In this document: in pieces, positions 40,075 through 50,437 of the stretch | How the letters are laid out: the number at the start of each line of letters is the position of its first letter | Position numbering within the stretch: position 1 is the stretch's first letter | DNA from: Gardnerella vaginalis ATCC 14018 = JCM 11026 | GTDB lineage: Bacteria > Actinomycetota > Actinomycetes > Actinomycetales > Bifidobacteriaceae | Direction: 5' to 3' | DNA: 64,000 nucleotides | Assembly (NCBI RefSeq): GCF_001042655.1 | Contig: NZ_AP012332.1 | Location: 434,001-498,000 of the forward strand | The notes under the pieces: generated by a model | The model's input: the letters and a program-made list of their open reading frames with translations, nothing else | What the model was told of the DNA's origin: nothing | The model's database searches: none | Translations under genes and position numbers: made by a program

Positions 40075-41016
40075 ATGACTAATAAGATATTTGCTGTTTT
40101 TAATAATGGATGTATGACTGTTATAAGTTTTACGAGTAGAGTTTTTAATTATTTTGTTAAATATTTTTCTTCAAAATCCGTGCAGTATTTTATTGGACTA
40201 ATCATTGGTATTCTTGCGATTATTGTGCTTTTTCTTCCTAGCGCATATGTTGTTGAAGAACCAGGACCAACTCAAGACGTTTTAGGAAAATCTTCTGGAA
40301 AATATGTGATAAACGTAGATAATCCTAATAATCCTAATAATCCTAATAAAAAAGCTGCTTCAGCTGTTTCGGGTTTAAAATCGCATTCAAAAAGTGGCAA
40401 ATTGCTTTTAGTCACAGTAAATACATCTGGAGTGCCAGGGTATGAGATTCCAAATATTTACGCTGTTTTATCTTGGTTTGATTCAAAAAAGCAGATTTTG
40501 CCGCGTGAGGTGTTAGTACCTGTAAATCAAAATGCAAGTGATTATAAAAAAGAAACAAATAAGCAGATGACTTCCTCGCAATCTTCTGCGCAAGTGGCGG
40601 CTTTGGATTATGCGAAGAAACATCTTAATGTGAATGTAAAAAACGTAAAAGTTAAGATGCATATAGACGATATTGGCGGTCCTTCTGCAGGAATGATGTA
40701 TGCTTTGGGTATTTTAAACAAGTTAACTGGCGTAGATTTGGCTGGCGGCAAAACAATAGCAGGCACGGGAACCATTGATAATAATGGGAAAGTTGGGGCA
40801 ATCGGCGGAATTCGTTTAAAGATGATATCTGCTAAAAGAGATGGTGCAAGATGGTTTCTAGCGCCAAATAGCAATTGTGATGAGGTGGTTGGCAATATTC
40901 CGCAAGGTTTAAACGTAGTAAGCGTTAAGACTTTAGATGATGCGTATAAAGCGTTGGAGAAAATTAAGGCTGGTAAAAGTATAAAGTCTTTTAAAACGTG
41001 TAATGCGAAGATGTAG
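40075..41016 (+). CDS. Lon-like (S16) membrane-anchored serine protease, PDZ domain absent
   Basis: An N-terminal membrane helix (near residues 38-60) is followed by an extracytoplasmic region and a Lon-type catalytic domain. That domain has Ser in GGPSAGM and Lys in GIRLKMISAK, the S16 dyad. Homologues (YlbL type) normally have a PDZ domain between the N-terminal region and the Lon domain. Here the NKQMTSSQ segment runs into the Lon domain within about 35 residues, so PDZ appears to be missing. ATG 40075 is preferred to TTG 40054. No ribosome site is present, and a TATAGAAT lies about ten bases upstream, so the message may be leaderless. Confidence 0.85.
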   Translation: MTNKIFAVFNNGCMTVISFTSRVFNYFVKYFSSKSVQYFIGLIIGILAIIVLFLPSAYVVEEPGPTQDVLGKSSGKYVINVDNPNNPNNPNKKAASAVSGLKSHSKSGKLLLVTVNTSGVPGYEIPNIYAVLSWFDSKKQILPREVLVPVNQNASDYKKETNKQMTSSQSSAQVAALDYAKKHLNVNVKNVKVKMHIDDIGGPSAGMMYALGILNKLTGVDLAGGKTIAGTGTIDNNGKVGAIGGIRLKMISAKRDGARWFLAPNSNCDEVVGNIPQGLNVVSVKTLDDAYKALEKIKAGKSIKSFKTCNAKM

Positions 41017-41041
41017 AAGATGTAGAAGATGTTGCTTCATT

Positions 41042-41121
41042 TTTAACTCTTTATTTCTTTAACTCTTTATTTCTTTAACTCTTTATTTCTTTAACTCTTT
41101 ATTTCTTTAACTCTTTATTTC
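41042..41121. repeat. Five exact tandem copies of a 16-base repeat
   Basis: TTTAACTCTTTATTTC is repeated five times without a mismatch at 41042-41121, beginning 26 bases after the Lon-like gene. It is non-coding and likely to vary in copy number between strains. Confidence 0.95.
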
Positions 41122-41318
41122 TATTATCGAAAATCCTATATTTAGTATGTTTTATTATGCAAAGTGCTGCATATTGTGTTTTAAGACACGCCGAGTGTGA
41201 TAATTTCGATGCTAAAAGCGAAAAATATAAAGTTTCCAATATATTTTTAACGTATTTTATGGTGATCTTTATAGAATCTAGGAATTTTTACGAATGTTAA
41301 AAAATGTGTAGATTTTCC

Positions 41319-41349
41319 TTGAATTTTCCTATGGGGGGGGGGGTACAAC
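41319..41349 (+). promoter_or_regulatory. Putative phase-variable promoter of the pilus locus (11-G spacer)
   Basis: TTGAAT (41319-41324, 4 of 6 consensus) and TACAAC (41344-41349, 4 of 6) are separated by 19 bases, eleven of which are an uninterrupted G run (41333-41343). Loss of two G would give the optimal 17-base spacer. It lies about 290 bases upstream of the adhesin start, in the only region that can drive the locus. Slipped-strand changes in the tract would alter promoter strength. Poly-G phase variation of sortase-dependent pili is known in bifidobacteria; the promoter-spacer position here is my inference. Confidence 0.6.
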
Positions 41350-41439
41350 TGTATACGTGCTTTGCAGTAGTGCACTGTATTATTTTGCATTTGAGCGTTT
41401 GGCGCGAATTTAACTACTGGTTTTGTGGAAGCTAGGTAT

Positions 41440-41592
41440 GCTTACGTTTATTTAACGCTTGCACGCTAGTTTTCATCGATAGTTTCGAGTCGGCTTACGT
41501 TTATTTACGTAACTTGATTGCGCGCTTTTTGCTTGCAATGCAGTGTTCTGCACCCCGGGCAATGCTTGTTGGCTTATAAAACCAACAAGCAT
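41440..41592 (+). promoter_or_regulatory. Pilus leader: 15-base direct repeats and an 11-base hairpin
   Basis: GCTTACGTTTATTTA occurs at 41440-41454 and 41493-41507. Downstream, ATGCTTGTTGG (41562-41572) pairs perfectly with CCAACAAGCAT (41582-41592) around a 9-base loop. No T-run follows, so this is not a normal terminator. The hairpin ends 45 bases before the adhesin ATG. The direct repeats could be operator half-sites and the hairpin an mRNA stability or protein-binding element. The rest of the 621-base gap from 41017 shows only the 16-base tandem repeats and the poly-G promoter. Confidence 0.5.
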
Positions 41593-41637
41593 GAGTATTC
41601 GAGCAGCTTTTAGATTTTAAGAAATCGAGGCGTTAGA

Positions 41638-44600
41638 ATGTCACGGCTTCATGGCTTATTGAACTTGCGTAAGCAGTTTAGAATGCTTAATGCTTCCTCT
41701 TCAAATAGTTGCAGCCGTACTCTCTCAAAGCGTTACGTTTTCCGCGCGCTTTTAGCAATGCTCGTTGCCGTCGCCACCATAGTAACCATGCTCATCGTGC
41801 CGCCAGTACAAGAAGCTAAGGGTTATGCAGATGGTAAAGCACCGATTCACGCTTGGTGGAATAGTTTTGGTACAGGCTTTGTGTCTGGTTCTGGCTTTGG
41901 AATAGGGGATGCTCCTAATCAAATTGCTTCTAACGTTGAAGTTGTGCGCAATGTTTATGACTCTTCTACTGGTAGAAATAGAACTCAGATTAAATGGGAA
42001 GTGTTTTTCAATACTTATTCTCAAATGTACGAGAGTATTGTAACAGGTGAACCTTATAGCGGTAAGCAAGAAGATAAAGCGTTTGGTGGTAAAAGACCTC
42101 TTCTTATGGCTTGGCTTCCAAAAGGTATTGATAGAAAGAGTATAAGAATTAGTAGAAGGAAGTCTGGTAATAGAGCTGGTTACCGTAACTATGGCTGCTG
42201 GCCTGAAACAGACAAGTGGTATAGCGCGTTTCCAAAAGATAAACAGTTTGATAAAACTGATAACGGTCGTGGATGTAGAGCAATCCAGTATCAAGAGCCT
42301 ATTGTTACAATTAATAAAACATTAGATGAGTTTGTTAACAGTAGTTCTAGATGGGCTCATTCGTTCGATGGTAATTTGTATGAAGGTAAAGCTGGTAAAG
42401 AGGGTGCTGGTAAAGATCAACAGCTATTTAACTCTTATTGGGATAATGCTTTAGGTACTTCCAGACTTACATCGTATTGCGATTCGAACGATAAGCATGA
42501 CATGTGCGAAATTAGAAACTGGAAGAATGATTTCTCTACTGTTCTTGCTGACTGGGAAGTTTCAGGTAATACGGCTTTTCAGTGGAATATCACTGCGTTT
42601 GTTGATAGTAGTATGGAAAATCGCTCAGATTTAGTATTGAAGAATCTTCCGTTCTCAGCTGGATGGAACTCTGGCAAAGGTACATATTCCGAAAGCGATT
42701 TTGGAGATTTAGAAACGAAGAAAAATGGTGCTGTAGAAGTTAGAAGTAAGTGGACTTTTATTGGACCTTTCGATAGTGATGGCGATGGTATTCCAGATTC
42801 TATGGAAGGTTATGACCATAAGAATCCTGATGCTTTGCCTGATTTTAGTAATAGTGATCAGCCGCATACTGTTTTGAATAATATTACTGATCCAAATGGT
42901 AAGACTGAAATCAAGTATCCTCAATATTCGTCTAGCATGATGAATGATTATGTAAAGAAATTAAATAATCAGAATTTAAGCTCGGACACTACTTATGGTG
43001 GCGTAGAGAATGTGCCTGTTACTACGTATGGTACGCCTGTAACAATTAAGCCGTACGTTAATACTGGTTCTTGGCAGGGGTGGGATTTAGGCGACTGGGA
43101 CGGTCAATATTCTCTACAAAACCATTATGGCGGTCACTATGTTGCAGGAAAAGATACGGATACTACTACTAATATTCCATCAGATTTTCCTAACGGCTCT
43201 AGCATGAAGTACGAGCTTACTTCTATTCCACAAGGTATTACGCAATCAAGTAGTTGTAGTACTGGTAAGAATAATTCTGACAAAGGCTGTGTGAGTATAG
43301 ATAGTAAAACTGGTTATATTACTTATAATCCAGGAAGGTTGGATCGTAAAACCGAAGGTATTACTTTTAAGGTGAAGATTACGCACCCAACTCCTAGTGC
43401 CTACCAATACAACTGTAAGTATACGACACCGATGGTTCAGGAAAATGTACCTATAAAAATCAAGGTTGTTTCTAATGCCATGTTGTACAACCCGCAGTAC
43501 AAGGAAACTACTGTTGCATACGATCCGAATCAGAAGAAGTTTAACCCTACTGATAGCGAAGAGCCTAAGAGTGTACGAGCTAACAAAAAGCCGTGGGTTA
43601 GAGTAGGTAATCTTCCTAAAGGTTCTACCTTTAAGTTAGAGAAGTATGGTAAATACGGTTCTCCTGTGCTTGATTGGTCTAAGATTGATTCGAAAAATAC
43701 AGGAAACGGCAAAGTGACGTTTAGCCCGTCTAAAACACAAGCTGGTAAAAGTGAAAAGACGCCTGTGCTTGTTACGTACCCAGATGGTTCTACGTCTAAA
43801 GATAGTGATGCAGGTAATTATGACAAGGTCGTGTATGCTACTGTTAAAGTTGGTGATTTGCCAATTTCAGGCGGTGACTTGAATCTTGGTTTATATGACG
43901 GGAATAGCATAAATAATAATGGTTTCTGGGGCTTTTCCTTTAGAGATAAAACGAATCCTCACGAGATCGATAAGGGTAAGAAAATAGGTCTGTCAGATAA
44001 GGATCACAAGAACCCTAATAAGGGTATTGTGTTTGATTCTTGGGCAAAGAATGGTAAAGGTCCTATTACTTTCCGCGTGATATGCCATAGGACGGATGTA
44101 CCTAATTCTCCGTTCGCGTTGCTTAAGCCTAAAGAAGGAAACAAAGAAGCTAGCGGAGAGATTAACGGCTTGCATTTTGAGGATTTCCGACAGTGGATTC
44201 GAGATAACGACAAGCGTTGCAAGGGCAAGGATTGCAGTAACGATAATCTCTACCTTCACTCTAGAGAATACGAAAATGACACTATGGAGCGTTCGCGCGC
44301 GATGATTGGTGGCACGCCTAAGGAAGGCGGCTCGTACGAGTGTAAAGTGTTTGCTTTCCACGACAAGCCTGATGATAACAAGCTTAAGGACTATAGTGGT
44401 TCGTTGGACACATTTGATAAAGCGGCAAAAAATGGTGGTTCTACTGAGTATTCAATACTTTTTGATAACTATGAAAGTATTAAAGCGGCAACAAAAGGCT
44501 CAGAGTGGATTACTGACAGTTTCTACTTTAAAATCAAGCTCAAAGACAACCAAAAGTACAACCCGACTTATGTAAAGATGCCAACTATTCAAGCTGGTAA

Positions 44601-46452
44601 GTCAATTAAGGATGGTAGGTATAGCAGTCCAACAAAAGACAATATCAGCACTGATCAGCCAAAGAGCACTAAAGATGGAAATGATGTTTCGGAGGATGAT
44701 CGAGCTAGCATTCTTGTTGGTGACCTTCCTGATGGCACGTGGTTTGAGATTAAGAAGCTACTTAGAAAAGTAGATGACAAAAACCATTCTGATAAGTTTA
44801 CGTTGCAACAAGAGAAGGAAACTTGGTCTAGGTTTGAAGATAGTGAAGACAACGTTACGCGCGATGAGCACGGCAATACTGTTAAGAAGAGTGGAAAAGT
44901 AGTTACTTTAGATCAGCCTAATCGCGAATATGGTTCTGTAACTTTCCACCCAGATAAGTGGCAGTCTGCTGGCGAGTATTGGGCGGAAGTTAGAGTTCAC
45001 TACCCAGACGGCTCTGTATCAGACGGCGAAGGCTCTGTAAACGAGAAGCACCCTGTGTACGCAAAGGTGAAAGTTACGCCTAAGCCTGGCAATAATAATT
45101 TTGGTCTTAACTTGTTTAGGTATACAACGGATTCTCAATACAGAACTATCAGCGTTGAAAATGGCATAAACCTTCATCCAGGAGATTTACTCGCTGGTAA
45201 CGATCGCCCTATGTTTGATTCTTACTTAACAAACGCTATTGGAAATCTTCATCAGCATATGATTTGCTCAAAGCAAGACAAGAATGGTAAGCAAACCGAC
45301 TACACGTATGGCATTCTTCCTGGTCATGTTAATAATGAGAAGTCGCAGAAAGATAGCGAAAAAGACGGATTGCGACTTTTGGAACCGCAGACGATTTGGA
45401 AGCATTCATCACTTAAGAATCAGTTTGAGTGCAATACTAATGGCAAAAAGTGCAAGTCTGATACTTACTTATACGATGATTGGGTTGATAGCGATAAAAG
45501 CTATAACACTTTTGAGCGCACGCACGGATCTTTCGGCGGCGTGGCGCAAAAGACCGGCGACTATGTGTGCAAAGTCTACGTTATAAAGGGCGATCAGAAG
45601 AAGTCGGATGCGTTTAAGAAAGCTGTCGAGTCTAATATCAAATCTAAGAAGAACGAAGACCCAGTTACAAGCGTTCTTAACGCTAGAGGTAATCCATATG
45701 GCAAAGAAGGCGAAGACTACAAAATTGGCGCATTCTCTGTGCATATTCATAAGGACAACCAGCTGTACAACCCGACTTATACAAAGATGCCAACGATTTT
45801 GGCGGGTAGTACTTTTGACAAGAACCTTAAGAATCACAAGGCTGACATAAGCTCTGACACTCCGCGAAGCAAGAAGATTGTTAAAGACAGCAATAATCAT
45901 GACGTTAATGCTAACGGCGTTCCAAAAGAGGATTTGGTTAACGTTAAGGAAGGCGCTCTGCCTGCTGGCACTTGGTACGAGATTAAGCGCTTTGTTAAGG
46001 CTGGCGATATTAAAAACTCGAAAGCAAAGAGTTTGCCTTGGGCTAACTTTGAAGACGGCGAAGATAACAAAGCTGATGGCAAGTTGGAAGCAGCCAGCAA
46101 GGACGCCACCGGCAAAGGCTCCGTCACCTTCCGCCCAGATAAGTGGCAGGATGAAGGCGAATATTGGGCTGAGATTAGGGTTCACTACCCGGATAGCTCT
46201 GCTTCGGATGATAAAGATTCAATCAACAAGGATCACCCTATCTACGCAAAAGTGGAGGTTACTAGACCAGATATTAGCGCTGGCGATTTGCATGTTGACG
46301 TGTACAAGTACTTTGACCATACAGCGTATAATTCCGATACCAATAAAGGCAGAGTCGACTCCGCAGATAACATTGCGAATGTTGACAACAAGGTTGGCGT
46401 TACTGTTATGCGCGGAATCGGCTTGCTGAATGACCTTGGTGTTGACTCATAG
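41638..46452 (+). CDS. Giant Rib-domain pilus tip adhesin, amino-terminal part (ends at in-frame TAG)
   Basis: Exported surface protein of a sortase-dependent pilus. A long signal peptide (basic lead, then a hydrophobic core near residues 38-58) is followed by a ~350-residue head. A calcium-type DSDGDGIPDSMEG motif lies near residue 376. Three Rib/alpha-like domains follow (near 617-740, 970-1150 and 1375-1545), each with YPDG/YPDS and YAKV or YATV signatures. They alternate with a Cys-containing module of about 200 residues. GAGG precedes ATG 41638. The frame stops at TAG 46450-46452 inside the third module but stays open after it. The product as read (1604 residues) lacks a wall anchor. Confidence 0.85.
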   Translation: MSRLHGLLNLRKQFRMLNASSSNSCSRTLSKRYVFRALLAMLVAVATIVTMLIVPPVQEAKGYADGKAPIHAWWNSFGTGFVSGSGFGIGDAPNQIASNVEVVRNVYDSSTGRNRTQIKWEVFFNTYSQMYESIVTGEPYSGKQEDKAFGGKRPLLMAWLPKGIDRKSIRISRRKSGNRAGYRNYGCWPETDKWYSAFPKDKQFDKTDNGRGCRAIQYQEPIVTINKTLDEFVNSSSRWAHSFDGNLYEGKAGKEGAGKDQQLFNSYWDNALGTSRLTSYCDSNDKHDMCEIRNWKNDFSTVLADWEVSGNTAFQWNITAFVDSSMENRSDLVLKNLPFSAGWNSGKGTYSESDFGDLETKKNGAVEVRSKWTFIGPFDSDGDGIPDSMEGYDHKNPDALPDFSNSDQPHTVLNNITDPNGKTEIKYPQYSSSMMNDYVKKLNNQNLSSDTTYGGVENVPVTTYGTPVTIKPYVNTGSWQGWDLGDWDGQYSLQNHYGGHYVAGKDTDTTTNIPSDFPNGSSMKYELTSIPQGITQSSSCSTGKNNSDKGCVSIDSKTGYITYNPGRLDRKTEGITFKVKITHPTPSAYQYNCKYTTPMVQENVPIKIKVVSNAMLYNPQYKETTVAYDPNQKKFNPTDSEEPKSVRANKKPWVRVGNLPKGSTFKLEKYGKYGSPVLDWSKIDSKNTGNGKVTFSPSKTQAGKSEKTPVLVTYPDGSTSKDSDAGNYDKVVYATVKVGDLPISGGDLNLGLYDGNSINNNGFWGFSFRDKTNPHEIDKGKKIGLSDKDHKNPNKGIVFDSWAKNGKGPITFRVICHRTDVPNSPFALLKPKEGNKEASGEINGLHFEDFRQWIRDNDKRCKGKDCSNDNLYLHSREYENDTMERSRAMIGGTPKEGGSYECKVFAFHDKPDDNKLKDYSGSLDTFDKAAKNGGSTEYSILFDNYESIKAATKGSEWITDSFYFKIKLKDNQKYNPTYVKMPTIQAGKSIKDGRYSSPTKDNISTDQPKSTKDGNDVSEDDRASILVGDLPDGTWFEIKKLLRKVDDKNHSDKFTLQQEKETWSRFEDSEDNVTRDEHGNTVKKSGKVVTLDQPNREYGSVTFHPDKWQSAGEYWAEVRVHYPDGSVSDGEGSVNEKHPVYAKVKVTPKPGNNNFGLNLFRYTTDSQYRTISVENGINLHPGDLLAGNDRPMFDSYLTNAIGNLHQHMICSKQDKNGKQTDYTYGILPGHVNNEKSQKDSEKDGLRLLEPQTIWKHSSLKNQFECNTNGKKCKSDTYLYDDWVDSDKSYNTFERTHGSFGGVAQKTGDYVCKVYVIKGDQKKSDAFKKAVESNIKSKKNEDPVTSVLNARGNPYGKEGEDYKIGAFSVHIHKDNQLYNPTYTKMPTILAGSTFDKNLKNHKADISSDTPRSKKIVKDSNNHDVNANGVPKEDLVNVKEGALPAGTWYEIKRFVKAGDIKNSKAKSLPWANFEDGEDNKADGKLEAASKDATGKGSVTFRPDKWQDEGEYWAEIRVHYPDSSASDDKDSINKDHPIYAKVEVTRPDISAGDLHVDVYKYFDHTAYNSDTNKGRVDSADNIANVDNKVGVTVMRGIGLLNDLGVDS

Positions 46453-47154
46453 TCTACAAATAAGCGCGGCGGCATTACGCTAAGAACGTTGTGCAGGGAT
46501 GCGAATGAGCCAGCTAAGGGCAGTGGTAATAAGTCTCAGGTTTGGAGCGAAAATCTAAATAAACTGTTCTTTAAGCTTAACAGCGGCGATAGTCAGAAAG
46601 TGTGGGGGCATGCGAACTTCCGACAGCAGGAAACTTGCCGTAAGAACGGTAATAAGGGTGATGGCTGCGTTACTGATGTAGCTAACCCTATGCTTTTTGA
46701 CAGCACTCGCGGAACTATGGAGCGCTCACGCGGATTTATTTCAAACACTAAAGCGCCTACGGAGACTGGAAAATACTATTGTGCAGTGTTTGCGTTGAAG
46801 CCAGATGCTTTGACTGAGTACAAGAATGCTGTGAAGAAAGGCACGATTAGTGTTGTGAATAATAGCGATATTGTTAGCGCTATGAGCTTTAAGGGCGAGA
46901 GCGGTATTGACTATGCTGCAAAATTCTTCCCAGTGTACGTGGTGAAACCATTCAAATTGCCAAAGACGGGCGGCATGAATTGGAACATGCTTCTTGGTGG
47001 TGTTGTGTTTGTTGGTACTTCTCTGATGCTTATTGCATTATTGCTTGATCAAAGCAAGTGGGGACGTGCGCTCATCGCTGAGATTATCAATATTATCAAA
47101 GTTTTTATCCGCAAAACCGCTAGAAAATGGCGCATTGAAAGGTGGCGATGCTGA
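46453..47154 (+). pseudogene. Anchor-bearing end of the tip adhesin, cut off by the TAG
   Basis: The adhesin frame continues without a shift after the TAG. It completes the third Cys module (TMERSRG and GKYYCAVFAL patterns like those in the first two) and ends with LPKTG (46957-46971), a membrane helix and a basic tail. By aligning the three modules, the TAG falls where module 1 has Trp (FDSWAKN) and module 2 has Tyr (FDSYLTN), so one base change from TGG, TAT or TAC explains it. No ribosome site serves an internal start. The sister proteins of the locus are intact. Confidence 0.78.
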
Positions 47155-47436
47155 TGAAAATTTTCTGCAGCGCAAAAACTGCAGTGTCAACGTTCCATGT
47201 GTCGGCAATGGTATTGCGTAGTTGCGTTACATAGTGACGTTACGCAGCTGCGTTACGCAGTGACGGCAATTATGCCGAAGCATGGTTCGGATTTAATCTT
47301 GCTGCGCGCGGCGCAAATCTTATACGCCGACAGCAGAGTTCATGCAGCTTGCAATGGCTCCGCCGACCGTGCGCAACACAAAACAGAAAACTTATCTCTT
47401 AAACCTGCTCGAAAGAGCAATAAAAAAGGAGAAATT
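47155..47436. other. Spacer between adhesin and major pilin
   Basis: This 282-base spacer has no convincing gene. It contains near-direct repeats of GCGTTACxCAGTGACG-type sequence (47224-47265) around a 12-base palindrome ACGCAGCTGCGT (47242-47253). An AAAAAAGGAGAA ribosome site ends just before the pilin ATG. An own promoter for the abundant pilin may lie here. Confidence 0.4.
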
Positions 47437-49089
47437 ATGAACAAGATAACTAAGCAATGCGTGGCGGCAATCGCCTCGCTCGCAATGGCTGGCACGCTGT
47501 GCGTCGCTGGCGCCGTGGTGGCTGGCAGCTCCGCTTGGGCTGTAACACCTGCAGCATCTAGTACTGATCCTGCACCGTGGGATAAATCTGCTGCCTCCAA
47601 GACTGGTACCATTACAATCACCAAGTACAAGGATGAAACCAATGACCAAGGTGTGCAGACAAAGAAAACAAAGGTTACTGGTGCAAAGTTTAAGGTAACT
47701 CCAGTTAGCAAAATAGATGGTAGTGCTATTGATCTTAAGAAGTATGATGATTGGCTAAAAGTTGCTGCTAAAGTCCCATCTCTTAACGCAAATCCTAGTT
47801 CTTTGAAAGATACTGATTTAGGTGCTGCATTACCAGAACAAACTACCAATGATGGTATTGCAACGTTCAGTAATCTTCAAATTGGCTTATACAAAGTTGA
47901 AGAAGTTAGTGTTCCAGATGGATACGAAAAGCTTCCAGAACCATTCTTCATGACTATTCCAGAGATAACCAGTGGCAAAAAAGGCACAGAATATAATTAC
48001 AATCCAACTGTCGATCCTAAGAATGCATATACTAAGGATGCTATTAAGAAGACTGTTGATACTAAGGGAATGGTTGGCACAAAGGATGATTTGCCATATA
48101 CCATTTCAACTTCTGTAGTCACAAATAGTGGTACGCCTGTTAAAGATCGTACGGCTGATGATTATCAGGGCTTTGCTGTGTGGGATGATGCGTTGACTAA
48201 AGCATATGATGCCAATGCGAACGTTGTGCAGAAAGTTAAGATCGGTAATTCTGAAATTACGAATACTAAAGGCAAAGAGGATAAGTATATAGTAGCAGTT
48301 AGTAATACGCCTGATGATAATAATCGTAAGCGTATTACCGTATCGTTTACAGATACAGGTCTTGGTGAAATTGCTACGGCTCTTAAGACTTCGCCAAATG
48401 CAAAGTTAACTGTTGATCTTAAATTCACTCTTAAAGAAGGAGTTGATTCTGGCGAACTCGTTAACAAGTATGGTTATCAGCCAGGATATAAGAAAGGTAC
48501 TCCTGAAAATGAAAAGCCAAAGCCTGTTAACCCAAACCCAGGTTCAGATTCCAAGGTAACTCTTGTTAAATTCAAGATTAAGAAGGTAAGCAGTACTAAC
48601 GCAACTGAAGGTCTTAGGGGTGCTAAGTTTGCTGTGTTTGCAAAGAAAAATGATGCTGACGCTTGTGCGGCTGATGTTTCTCGTGCAGATGATAAGTGCA
48701 AGAGTAAGTCTTCTAAGGGCTTTGCTGATACTGAAACTGCTGATAAGACTGGTTTGACAGCAGATGGGTTTAAGGCAAAGGTTGGACAAACGTTCTACGT
48801 TGTGGAAACTAAGGCTCCAGACAACTATGTTTTGGCTCCAAAGGTTGAAGAAGTTAATATTCCTACGGAGTATACAAAAGATGCTAAGTATGATACTCAA
48901 TCGCAGACGTTTATTTACTCGTTCAAGGATGTTCCAACGAGCAATAACATCGACCACTGGTTCAAGCTTCCTAAGACTGGTGCTTACGGCGTGATTATCT
49001 TCGCCATCATCGGTTTGGGCTTGGTTGGCGCTGGTACATTCATGTACATGCGCAACAATCGCAAGAAGGAAGAAGAACAGGCTGCCTGA
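47437..49089 (+). CDS. SpaA/FimA-type major pilin with LPKTG anchor
   Basis: Structural shaft subunit of a sortase-assembled pilus. ATG 47437 follows AAGGAG closely, and a signal peptide follows (cleavage near SSAWA-VTP, residue ~34). Pilin features in order: a Lys in NPTVDPKNA fitting the pilin-motif lysine, a first isopeptide-type domain (KVEEVSVPDGYE), a second domain with the E-box VVETKAPDNY, then LPKTG (48967-48981), a membrane helix and a basic/acidic tail. The 550-residue length is typical. It is followed by its dedicated sortase. Confidence 0.93.
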   Translation: MNKITKQCVAAIASLAMAGTLCVAGAVVAGSSAWAVTPAASSTDPAPWDKSAASKTGTITITKYKDETNDQGVQTKKTKVTGAKFKVTPVSKIDGSAIDLKKYDDWLKVAAKVPSLNANPSSLKDTDLGAALPEQTTNDGIATFSNLQIGLYKVEEVSVPDGYEKLPEPFFMTIPEITSGKKGTEYNYNPTVDPKNAYTKDAIKKTVDTKGMVGTKDDLPYTISTSVVTNSGTPVKDRTADDYQGFAVWDDALTKAYDANANVVQKVKIGNSEITNTKGKEDKYIVAVSNTPDDNNRKRITVSFTDTGLGEIATALKTSPNAKLTVDLKFTLKEGVDSGELVNKYGYQPGYKKGTPENEKPKPVNPNPGSDSKVTLVKFKIKKVSSTNATEGLRGAKFAVFAKKNDADACAADVSRADDKCKSKSSKGFADTETADKTGLTADGFKAKVGQTFYVVETKAPDNYVLAPKVEEVNIPTEYTKDAKYDTQSQTFIYSFKDVPTSNNIDHWFKLPKTGAYGVIIFAIIGLGLVGAGTFMYMRNNRKKEEEQAA

Positions 49090-49115
49090 TTTGCTCAGTT
49101 TGATGAGTAAATCAT

Positions 49116-49198
49116 AAACGATTGAGTCTATAACGATTGAGTCTATAAACGATTGAGTCTGCATAAATTGAGTCTAGGAGTAAAATCCTAGACTCAAT
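49116..49198 (+). promoter_or_regulatory. Repeats and 13-base perfect hairpin between pilin and sortase
   Basis: Three or four copies of ACGATTGAGTCT-like sequence run from 49117 to 49176. The last enters a perfect hairpin: ATTGAGTCTAGGA (49167-49179) with TCCTAGACTCAAT (49186-49198), 6-base loop, no T-run. It lies 77-109 bases after the pilin stop and 88 bases before the sortase start. A role as 3' stabiliser of pilin mRNA, or attenuator lowering sortase, is plausible. Confidence 0.6.
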
Positions 49199-49285
49199 AC
49201 TATGTAGTGCGTTTGTTACCTTTTTGGTCGATTTGGGGAACAAAATCGGGAATTATTTCCATAAATTCTTTAGCTTGGAGGAGTT

Positions 49286-50437
49286 ATGAAGCTAGCCGAT
49301 ATTAGCAATTGGTGCCGCTTGTTGAGCGAGCGCGCTGTTGCTAAATTGTTTAAGAATAAGGCGAAGCGTACCTCCAGTGTGGCTAGCACGAGCAGTGTGG
49401 CTAGCACGAGCAGTGTGGCTAGCACGAGCAATGTGGCTAGCACGAGCAATGTGGCTGGTGCGAGTGGCGTGGCTGCGGAAAAGTCGCTAGCAACCGAAGA
49501 GCAAACTCCACGATCCAACTCAAGCCAAAAAACACAGAAAAACTTAAAAACACAGAAAACTTTTATACATCGCATAATTGAGCCGATTGCGTTAGTGCTA
49601 GCAGGCGTATTGTTCTTCAGCTACCCAGTGGCGTCAACACTGTGGAACAACCACGTGTCTAAACAAATTTCCATAGATTACGACAAAGTAAGCTACAATC
49701 AGGCCGCTGGCGTGCGAGAATCTATTCTAAGAAGTGCGCGAAAATACAATGCGCGCAGAAAAAAATTCTTTACAGCCGACCCGTATGACGGCAGTGACAA
49801 TTACAAAAAAACAGTAGACTATAAGTCATATATCAAACAACTAGACGAACCAATGGGAATTATGGGAATCATAAAAATCCCGAAAATTGGCGTAAAACTA
49901 CCAATTTATCATGGCACTTCGCGCGATGTTCTAGCTCGCGGAGCAGGGCATTTGTATGGTACAGATTTACCTGTGGGCGGCAAAAACAGGCATACCGTTA
50001 TTACAGCTCATACTGGTTTGCCTACGGCAACTATGTTTGACGGTTTAATCGACATGAAGCGTGGAGACTACTTCTACATTGATGTACAGGGCGATACAAT
50101 GCGCTACAGGGTGTTTCGCATTAGTGTTGTAGACCCGCAGGATATCAGTTTGCTGCAGCGTGAGCCTGGGCGCGATTTGGCGACTTTGCTTACATGCACG
50201 CCGTATGGTGTGAACTCGTATAGGCTACTGGTTACGGGGTATCGCGTGCTGCCGGACCCAGCGCACGCTCCAGAAGATCATCTTCAGTGGCCCCTTTGGA
50301 TGACGCTGTTTGTAGCTGCTATGATTCTTTCGCTGTTGATAATTTCAATCATGGTAACTGGGTACTTACAAAAGCGTAAGAATAAATCAGATTTGCGCGG
50401 CAAACACATACTGCGCGAGACCTGCCTTCGCGATTAA
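49286..50437 (+). CDS. srtC: Class C (pilus-assembly) sortase
   Basis: Transpeptidase that polymerises pilins at their LPXTG motif. A cytoplasmic lead of ~85 residues (with a short tandem repeat) precedes the first membrane helix. The catalytic parts are clear: His in VITAHTG, Cys in LLTCTPYG and Arg in NSYRLLVTG. DPY near residue 166 fits the class C lid motif. A C-terminal membrane helix followed by a basic tail is also class C-like. GGAGGAG precedes ATG 49286. It should act on the adjacent pilin and, if anchored, the tip adhesin. Confidence 0.94.
   Translation: MKLADISNWCRLLSERAVAKLFKNKAKRTSSVASTSSVASTSSVASTSNVASTSNVAGASGVAAEKSLATEEQTPRSNSSQKTQKNLKTQKTFIHRIIEPIALVLAGVLFFSYPVASTLWNNHVSKQISIDYDKVSYNQAAGVRESILRSARKYNARRKKFFTADPYDGSDNYKKTVDYKSYIKQLDEPMGIMGIIKIPKIGVKLPIYHGTSRDVLARGAGHLYGTDLPVGGKNRHTVITAHTGLPTATMFDGLIDMKRGDYFYIDVQGDTMRYRVFRISVVDPQDISLLQREPGRDLATLLTCTPYGVNSYRLLVTGYRVLPDPAHAPEDHLQWPLWMTLFVAAMILSLLIISIMVTGYLQKRKNKSDLRGKHILRETCLRD
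49376..49465 (+). repeat. 18-base tandem repeat inside the sortase gene
   Basis: AGTGTGGCTAGCACGAGC occurs three times exactly (49376-49429), then as a one-base variant (49430-49447) and a degenerate copy (49448-49465). It encodes a six-residue repeat of the type SVASTS. Copy changes keep the frame, so length rather than phase would vary. Confidence 0.95.

What the first reader, a model, noticed from the sequence alone, without database searches (positions are those of the whole stretch)
41319..41349. An 11-G tract forms the spacer of the pilus-locus promoter
TTGAAT and TACAAC are separated by 19 bases, 11 of them an unbroken G run; two fewer G gives the ideal 17. A homopolymer in this position is a textbook rheostat: slippage would tune or switch expression of adhesin, pilin and sortase. 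Poly-G switching of bifidobacterial pili is known, but a promoter-spacer location differs from tracts inside pilin genes.
Basis: partly seen in the sequence, partly recalled or inferred. Interest (0 to 1): 0.78.

Follow-up and report, generated by a model that had tools for sequence, protein, structure and literature searches.

The report
Poly-G promoter switch before pilus genes
In a Gardnerella genome a run of 11 Gs sits between the two halves of the likely promoter of a pilus gene cluster, where gaining or losing a G should turn the genes up or down; the same layout recurs before surface-protein genes in related species, and similar switches are already known in other bacteria.

Summary
In detail: TTGAAT (41319-41324), 19 bases ending in G11, then TACAAC (41344-41349), 294 bases before a large surface protein followed by a SpaH/EbpB pilin and a class C sortase. 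The promoter reading is well supported. Of 12 Gardnerella-type genomes, 9 can be read through the tract at this locus; all 9 keep TTG, a 7-8-base half-spacer, G8-13 and TAnAA, giving spacers of 16-21 and exactly 17 in 4 of 9. TTGA-N9-12-G9 gives 83 rows (64 distinct tracts) in these 12 genomes and 0 for the mirrored pattern. In this genome 24 tracts of G9 or more stand against one of G7-8; 12 of 24 carry TTG[AC] at the right distance, 1.1 expected. So it is one member of a recurring class. Slippage and length-dependent expression were not shown: no second strain, reads or RNA. The kind is known (porA, tp0126), and upstream G/C tracts in Gardnerella are in print; the promoter-spacer layout across the group is the new part. 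In this strain an in-frame stop cuts the adhesin before its LPKTG signal.

The parts
41319..41324 (+). -35 element TTGAAT (4 of 6 to TTGACA)
   Evidence: TTG invariant in the 8 equal-length orthologs aligned on the tract, and also present in G009
41325..41332 (+). fixed half of the spacer, 8 nt
   Evidence: 8 nt in 8 of 9 readable orthologs, 7 nt in G009
41333..41343 (+). G11 tract, variable half of the spacer
   Evidence: orthologs have G8 to G13
41344..41349 (+). -10 element TACAAC (4 of 6 to TATAAT)
   Evidence: Positions 1, 2, 4 and 5 (TA.AA) invariant in 9 of 9 orthologs
41350..41637 (+). downstream region with predicted transcript start near 41356 (inferred) and long 5' leader
   Evidence: No Rfam family near its gathering score and no consensus promoter in it
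41638..46452 (+). large surface protein (long Rib domain), presumed adhesin; frame ends at TAG 46450-46452
   Evidence: the G009 counterpart has an open frame of 1840 aa
46453..47154 (+). same frame continued, with LPKTG at 46957-46971
   Evidence: searched apart, no family hit
47437..49089 (+). SpaH/EbpB family LPXTG major pilin (start chosen by eye at the signal sequence; longest ORF from 47197)
   Evidence: NF033902 475 bits, cut-off 95
49286..50437 (+). class C sortase
   Evidence: NF033745 260.7 bits, cut-off 160

Best explanation
The tract is the length-variable half of the -35/-10 spacer of a sigma-70-type promoter that starts the adhesin-pilin-sortase cluster. The other half of the spacer is held at about 8 bases. 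Replication slippage would change the G count, move the spacer through about 16 to 21 bases around the 17-base optimum, and so tune or switch transcription. With G11 (19 bases) the sequenced copy should be weaker than a G9 copy. Shown here: position, conservation of both elements and of the half-spacer, different tract lengths between species, recurrence before surface-protein genes. Inferred: slippage, the length-to-output relation, the transcript start, co-transcription of pilin and sortase.
For: 9 of 9 readable orthologs keep TTG + 7-8 nt half-spacer + G8-13 + TAnAA, spacers 19, 18, 21, 17, 17, 17, 18, 17, 16. TTGA-N9-12-G9: 83 rows (64 tracts) against 0 mirrored rows in 12 Gardnerella-type genomes. 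G9-TA 112 against 31 mirrored in 11 genomes. In G000, 12 of 24 tracts have TTG[AC] at 7-10 nt, shuffled mean 1.1, maximum 6 of 10,000 shuffles; non-redundant set across genomes 20 of 41, mean 1.7, maximum 7 of 5,000. 53 of 63 such promoters have total spacers of 17-19. Paralogous promoters with an identical core differ in G count: 9,10,10,10,11 in G000 and 9,9,11 in G110. Another Gardnerella tract was shown to vary between colonies of one strain (PMC11287997 section 11).
Against: No tract-length variation within this species, no RNA and no reads were available. Some paralog sets do not vary (10,10,10 in G075; 10,10 in G044; 9,9 in G046), and of 6 tract pairs of G000 and G009 that I matched by eye 5 have equal length. 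The hexamers are weak (4 of 6 each); the strict scanner finds no promoter in 41010-41760 (0, shuffles mean 2.2), and this one would fail it even at 17 bases because TACAAC lacks the final T. TA after a tract is not specific to promoters: 5 of the 17 TA tracts in G000 lie inside a long frame (L045, L051, L052, L060 on the opposite strand, L057 on the same). In genomes other than G000 I fetched only tracts followed by TA. Several of the 9 orthologs are closely related and share flanks.
Confidence: 0.8

Rival explanations
1. The tract lies in the promoter but acts by another route: a binding site or structural element (G-quadruplex or unusual helix) for a regulator, with spacer length secondary.
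For: Poly-G tracts act by other routes in some promoters, for example tprL of Treponema, where the tract overlaps the -10 region (PMC7864442 passages). Not tested here.
Against: The non-G half is held at 7-10 nt and 53 of 63 spacers fall at 17-19, as expected for spacing.
Confidence: 0.1
2. The G-tract sits in the spacer and slips, but its length has little effect on output, and the tracts persist for another reason such as mutation bias.
For: Half of the tracts in G000 (12 of 24) do not show the promoter motif, and some are inside genes. No expression data.
Against: Conserved -35 and -10 on either side of a tract present in all 9 readable orthologs; strong excess over the mirrored pattern.
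Confidence: 0.08
3. The tract length is an assembly artefact.
For: Homopolymer lengths are often miscalled; two orthologs have assembly gaps at the tract (G014, G046).
Against: A tract with the same flanking elements is present in 9 readable genomes. Only the exact count of 11 could be wrong.
Confidence: 0.02

Closest known systems
Neisseria meningitidis porA and fetA promoter-spacer homopolymers
   Same: Homopolymer between -35 and -10 of a surface-protein gene, described as altering sigma-factor binding by spacing (PMC2791445 passages; PMC7864442 passages)
   Different: Unrelated Gram-negative host and gene; there variation and effect were measured, here not
Treponema pallidum tp0126 poly-G promoter
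   Same: Poly-G between -35 and -10, best transcription at a 17-nt spacing (PMC7864442 passages)
   Different: Spirochete outer-membrane protein; here a Gram-positive pilus cluster and a recurring layout across many loci
Bifidobacterium breve sortase-dependent pilus G-tracts (bbr_0113, bbr_1889)
   Same: Related bacterium, G-tract at the first gene of a sortase-pilus cluster (PMC9187656 passages)
   Different: There the tract is inside the coding sequence and acts by frameshift; the same paper mentions other UCC2003 G-tracts within promoter spacers without detail
Gardnerella homopolymer tracts of Garcia et al. 2024
   Same: Same group; about 70% of G/C tracts of 8 bp or more lie within 300 bp upstream of ORFs, many of surface proteins; one tract shown variable (PMC11287997 section 11)
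   Different: In the parts I saw, no assignment to -35/-10 spacers and no statement on this pilus locus

Membership tests
Promoter-spacer homopolymer phase variation (porA/tp0126 type) | Homopolymer between a -35 and a -10 element | tested here: met
   by sequence and conservation, not by transcript mapping
Promoter-spacer homopolymer phase variation (porA/tp0126 type) | Tract length varies between clones or isolates | tested here: inconclusive
   G8-G13 among orthologs and G9-G11 among paralogs, but some sets do not vary and 5 of 6 G000/G009 pairs are equal; no second strain was held
Promoter-spacer homopolymer phase variation (porA/tp0126 type) | Transcription depends on tract length | not testable with these tools
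   Needs reporter or RNA data
Bifidobacterial pilus frameshift switch (B. [quoted passage not shown]
   Tract ends 294 nt before the ATG and no frame of 50 aa or more on that strand spans it
Sortase-dependent SpaH/EbpB-type pilus cluster | Major pilin and pilus-type (class C) sortase side by side | tested here: met
   NF033902 and NF033745 above their cut-offs
Sortase-dependent SpaH/EbpB-type pilus cluster | Wall-anchored adhesin subunit with LPXTG in the same frame | tested here: not met
   In this strain the frame stops at 46452, before LPKTG at 46957-46971; in G009 the frame is open for 1840 aa

The most novel reading that the evidence does not exclude
Gardnerella carries a dedicated set of poly-G promoters (TTGA or TTGC, a fixed 8-9-nt half-spacer, G8-15, TA) that set the output of adhesins, pilins and a paralogous family of wall proteins independently. 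Each cell would wear a random combination of surface proteins, and the population a combinatorial surface code that can be read from G counts.
Probability: 0.45. Interest if true: 0.65.

Novelty: new member of a known kind. Interest (0 to 1): 0.5.

Why it matters
If length sets transcription, pilus and surface-protein states of Gardnerella could be read from DNA by counting Gs in reads from cultures or samples. It would give a mechanism for part of the clonal variation already reported (PMC11287997), and may bear on the report that pilation depended on cultivation and subculturing (PMC12095359 passages).

Tried and rejected
Intragenic frameshift switch: rejected, no frame spans the tract. Alternative -10 TATACG at 41352-41357: rejected, not kept in the orthologs beyond G009, while the hexamer directly after the Gs is. 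Known RNA in the leader: one hit far below its gathering score (RAGATH-12, 17.6 against 75 bits). Another consensus promoter: none found in 41010-41760 or 46900-49400 by a strict scan; one weak terminator-like hairpin at 47275-47290, where shuffles give 2.3 on average. Strain-level length comparison: not possible; the one named genome scan gave 10 loci, all on contigs of the lengths of genomes already held. Extension to other genomes of the GTDB genus: 32 rows against 12 mirrored rows in the other 100 genomes; of 19 such loci inspected a few look promoter-like (G018, G026, G005, G041), so I make no claim there. RNA-seq paper PMC5460279 (passages): nothing on this locus by the terms used.

Rows dropped before counts: of 137 distinct tracts (tracts with identical 25-nt flanks in one genome merged), the promoter-distance count used 109; left out were 15 not followed by TA and 13 TA tracts with N or a contig end in the upstream 40 bases. 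Orthologs left out of the 9: G014 and G046 (assembly gap at the tract) and G044 (no run of 7 or more G in the 3.2 kb fetched, which holds N). G009 was left out of the upstream column count because its half-spacer is one base shorter.

Full report
What is there. The window is bases 434001-498000 of a single-contig genome of 1,667,406 bases, handle G000. Ten related genomes have contigs of the same lengths as records named Gardnerella or Bifidobacteriaceae bacterium, among them G. swidsinskii, G. piotii and G. greenwoodii. That G000 is G. vaginalis ATCC 14018 is my recollection of its size and comes from no call. The reported sequence is exact: TTGAAT 41319-41324, 19 bases, TACAAC 41344-41349, with G11 at 41333-41343.

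Is it chance? The tract is the only run of 8 or more G on either strand of the window. Genome-wide the runs are bimodal: 24 of G6, one of G7, none of G8, then 24 of G9 to G15. Of these 24 tracts, 17 are followed by TA (shuffled mean 3.1, maximum 12 of 10,000) and 12 have TTG[AC] with the hexamer ending 7-10 bases before the tract (mean 1.1, maximum 6); 11 have both. Five of the 12 are paralogs with the same core; counting them once leaves 8 of 20. On the other side, 12 of 24 tracts do not fit, one of the 12 that fit (L048) is inside a gene, and 5 of the 17 TA tracts lie in long frames, so TA alone is no mark of a promoter.

The orthologous promoter. Relatives of the adhesin were found in 12 of 112 genomes of the GTDB genus at E 1e-10 or better; I call these 12 Gardnerella-type. 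At the adhesin locus 9 of the 12 can be read through the tract. Half-spacer plus G: G000 8+11, G009 7+11, G090 8+13, G022 8+9, G031 8+9, G075 8+9, G109 8+10, G110 8+9, G111 8+8; that is 19, 18, 21, 17, 17, 17, 18, 17 and 16. G014 and G046 have assembly gaps at the tract, and G044 showed no tract in a stretch that holds N. Aligned on the tract, TTG is invariant in the 8 genomes with an 8-base half-spacer, and positions 1, 2, 4 and 5 of the -10 hexamer are invariant in all 9, while most farther positions vary. G009 differs from G000 by one base lost from the non-G half, so there spacing changed without the tract.

A class of promoters. TTGA-N9-12-G9 gives 83 rows, 64 distinct tracts by my count of the list, in the 12 Gardnerella-type genomes, and no row for the mirrored pattern; the other 100 genomes give 32 rows against 12. 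G9-TA gives 112 against 31 mirrored in 11 genomes. Of 109 TA tracts with clean upstream sequence 63 have the -35 motif at 7-10 bases, and 53 of the 63 have total spacers of 17-19; in a non-redundant set 20 of 41 have it, 1.7 expected. In the genomes other than G000 I fetched only tracts followed by TA, so these last counts speak of that subset. The 11 G000 tracts with both marks lie before this adhesin, a paralogous adhesin (L054), a surface protein with atypical Rib domains (L043), five paralogs that share the start MMNKKAIAAFAAGATLLAGFAMATPA (L038, L040, L042, L056, L061), two proteins with signal-like starts judged by eye (L039, L055), and one unclear frame (L050). A further tract (L058) lies 258 bases before a second SpaH/EbpB pilin, but its upstream sequence does not fit TTG.

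Does length vary? Paralogous promoters with the same core have G counts of 9,10,10,10,11 in G000, 9 and five times 10 in G009 and in G109, 9,10,10,10 in G090, 9,10 in G031 and 9,9,11 in G110; but 10,10,10 in G075, 10,10 in G044 and 9,9 in G046 do not differ. L038 and L042 share 25 bases before and 10 after the tract and differ as G9 and G10. Of six tract pairs of G000 and G009 matched by eye, five are of equal length, this locus (G11 in both) among them. Lengths therefore differ, but the data do not give a rate and show no variation within one strain.

How it most likely works. A sigma-70-type holoenzyme reads TTGAAT and TACAAC; slippage in the G run would change their distance and helical phase and so promoter strength. 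At G11 the spacer is 19, so the sequenced copy is probably in a lower state than a G9 copy would be. This is inference: there was no RNA, no reads and no second strain. Both hexamers match the consensus at 4 of 6, and the strict scanner does not report this promoter or any other in 41010-41760. That pilin and sortase depend on the same promoter is inferred from order and orientation; the strict scan found no promoter before them, and the gap between the end of the adhesin frame (47154) and the pilin start (47437) is 282 bases.

A twist in this strain. The adhesin frame stops at TAG 46450-46452, and the same frame continues to LPKTG; the G009 counterpart has an open frame of 1840 aa. In this strain the switch would act on an adhesin without its wall anchor, plus uninterrupted pilin and sortase frames.

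What is known. Homopolymers between -35 and -10 vary the expression of porA and fetA in meningococci (PMC2791445, passages) and of tp0126 in Treponema with an optimum of 17 (PMC7864442, passages). B. breve pili use G-tracts inside the coding sequence, and that paper says in passing that UCC2003 has other G-tracts within promoter spacers (PMC9187656, passages). Garcia et al. reported that about 70% of Gardnerella G/C tracts lie within 300 bp upstream of ORFs, often of surface proteins, and showed one, at another gene, to differ between colonies (PMC11287997, outline, passages and section 11). In the listings of my paper searches and in the passages I opened I saw no assignment of Gardnerella tracts to promoter spacers and no account of this locus as such a switch; most subscription journals and bioRxiv preprints are not in that library.

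Verdict. Observation confirmed; the promoter-spacer reading is well supported; switching is probable but unshown. It is a new member of a known kind, made more interesting by being one of a set shared across the group.

Noticed in passing
46450-46452 in the frame 41638-47154: In-frame stop cuts the adhesin before its LPKTG signal in this strain; the G009 counterpart has an open frame of 1840 aa.
   Followed up: partly
41042-41122: A 16-bp unit repeated 5.1 times without mismatch, about 200 bp upstream of the promoter; G009 has one exact copy. A possible second length-variable element.
   Followed up: partly
49375-49456: An 18-bp unit repeated 4.6 times inside the sortase frame, coding for a repeated Ser/Thr-Val-Ala segment near its N-terminus.
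   Followed up: no
G000, 24 tracts of G9 or more: G lies on the + strand in 11 of 12 tracts below 0.83 Mb and on the - strand in 12 of 12 above 1.03 Mb, as if the G-rich strand followed replication direction; origin and terminus were not located.
   Followed up: no
L053 (G000 near 1148.5 kb); L049 (near 820.9 kb) shares the right-hand side: The G-tract sits inside what looks by eye like a terminator hairpin (cagccta-G10-tcctctctaggctg followed by Ts).
   Followed up: no
L057 and similar contexts in L092, L094, L139, L146, L157, L190, L193: A tract with the context atggtgct(t/c)-G9-11-tattc recurs in several genomes; in G000 (L057) it lies in a 509-aa open stretch near its start, so it may be a coding frameshift switch. 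Frames of the others were not examined.
   Followed up: partly
G048 near 2.59-2.63 Mb, G058 near 2.44-2.49 Mb, and G088: Other genomes of the GTDB genus have families of identical tract contexts: G9-TACGAT five and four times within about 40 kb, and G9-TAGTTT or TAGCTT ten times in G088.
   Followed up: no
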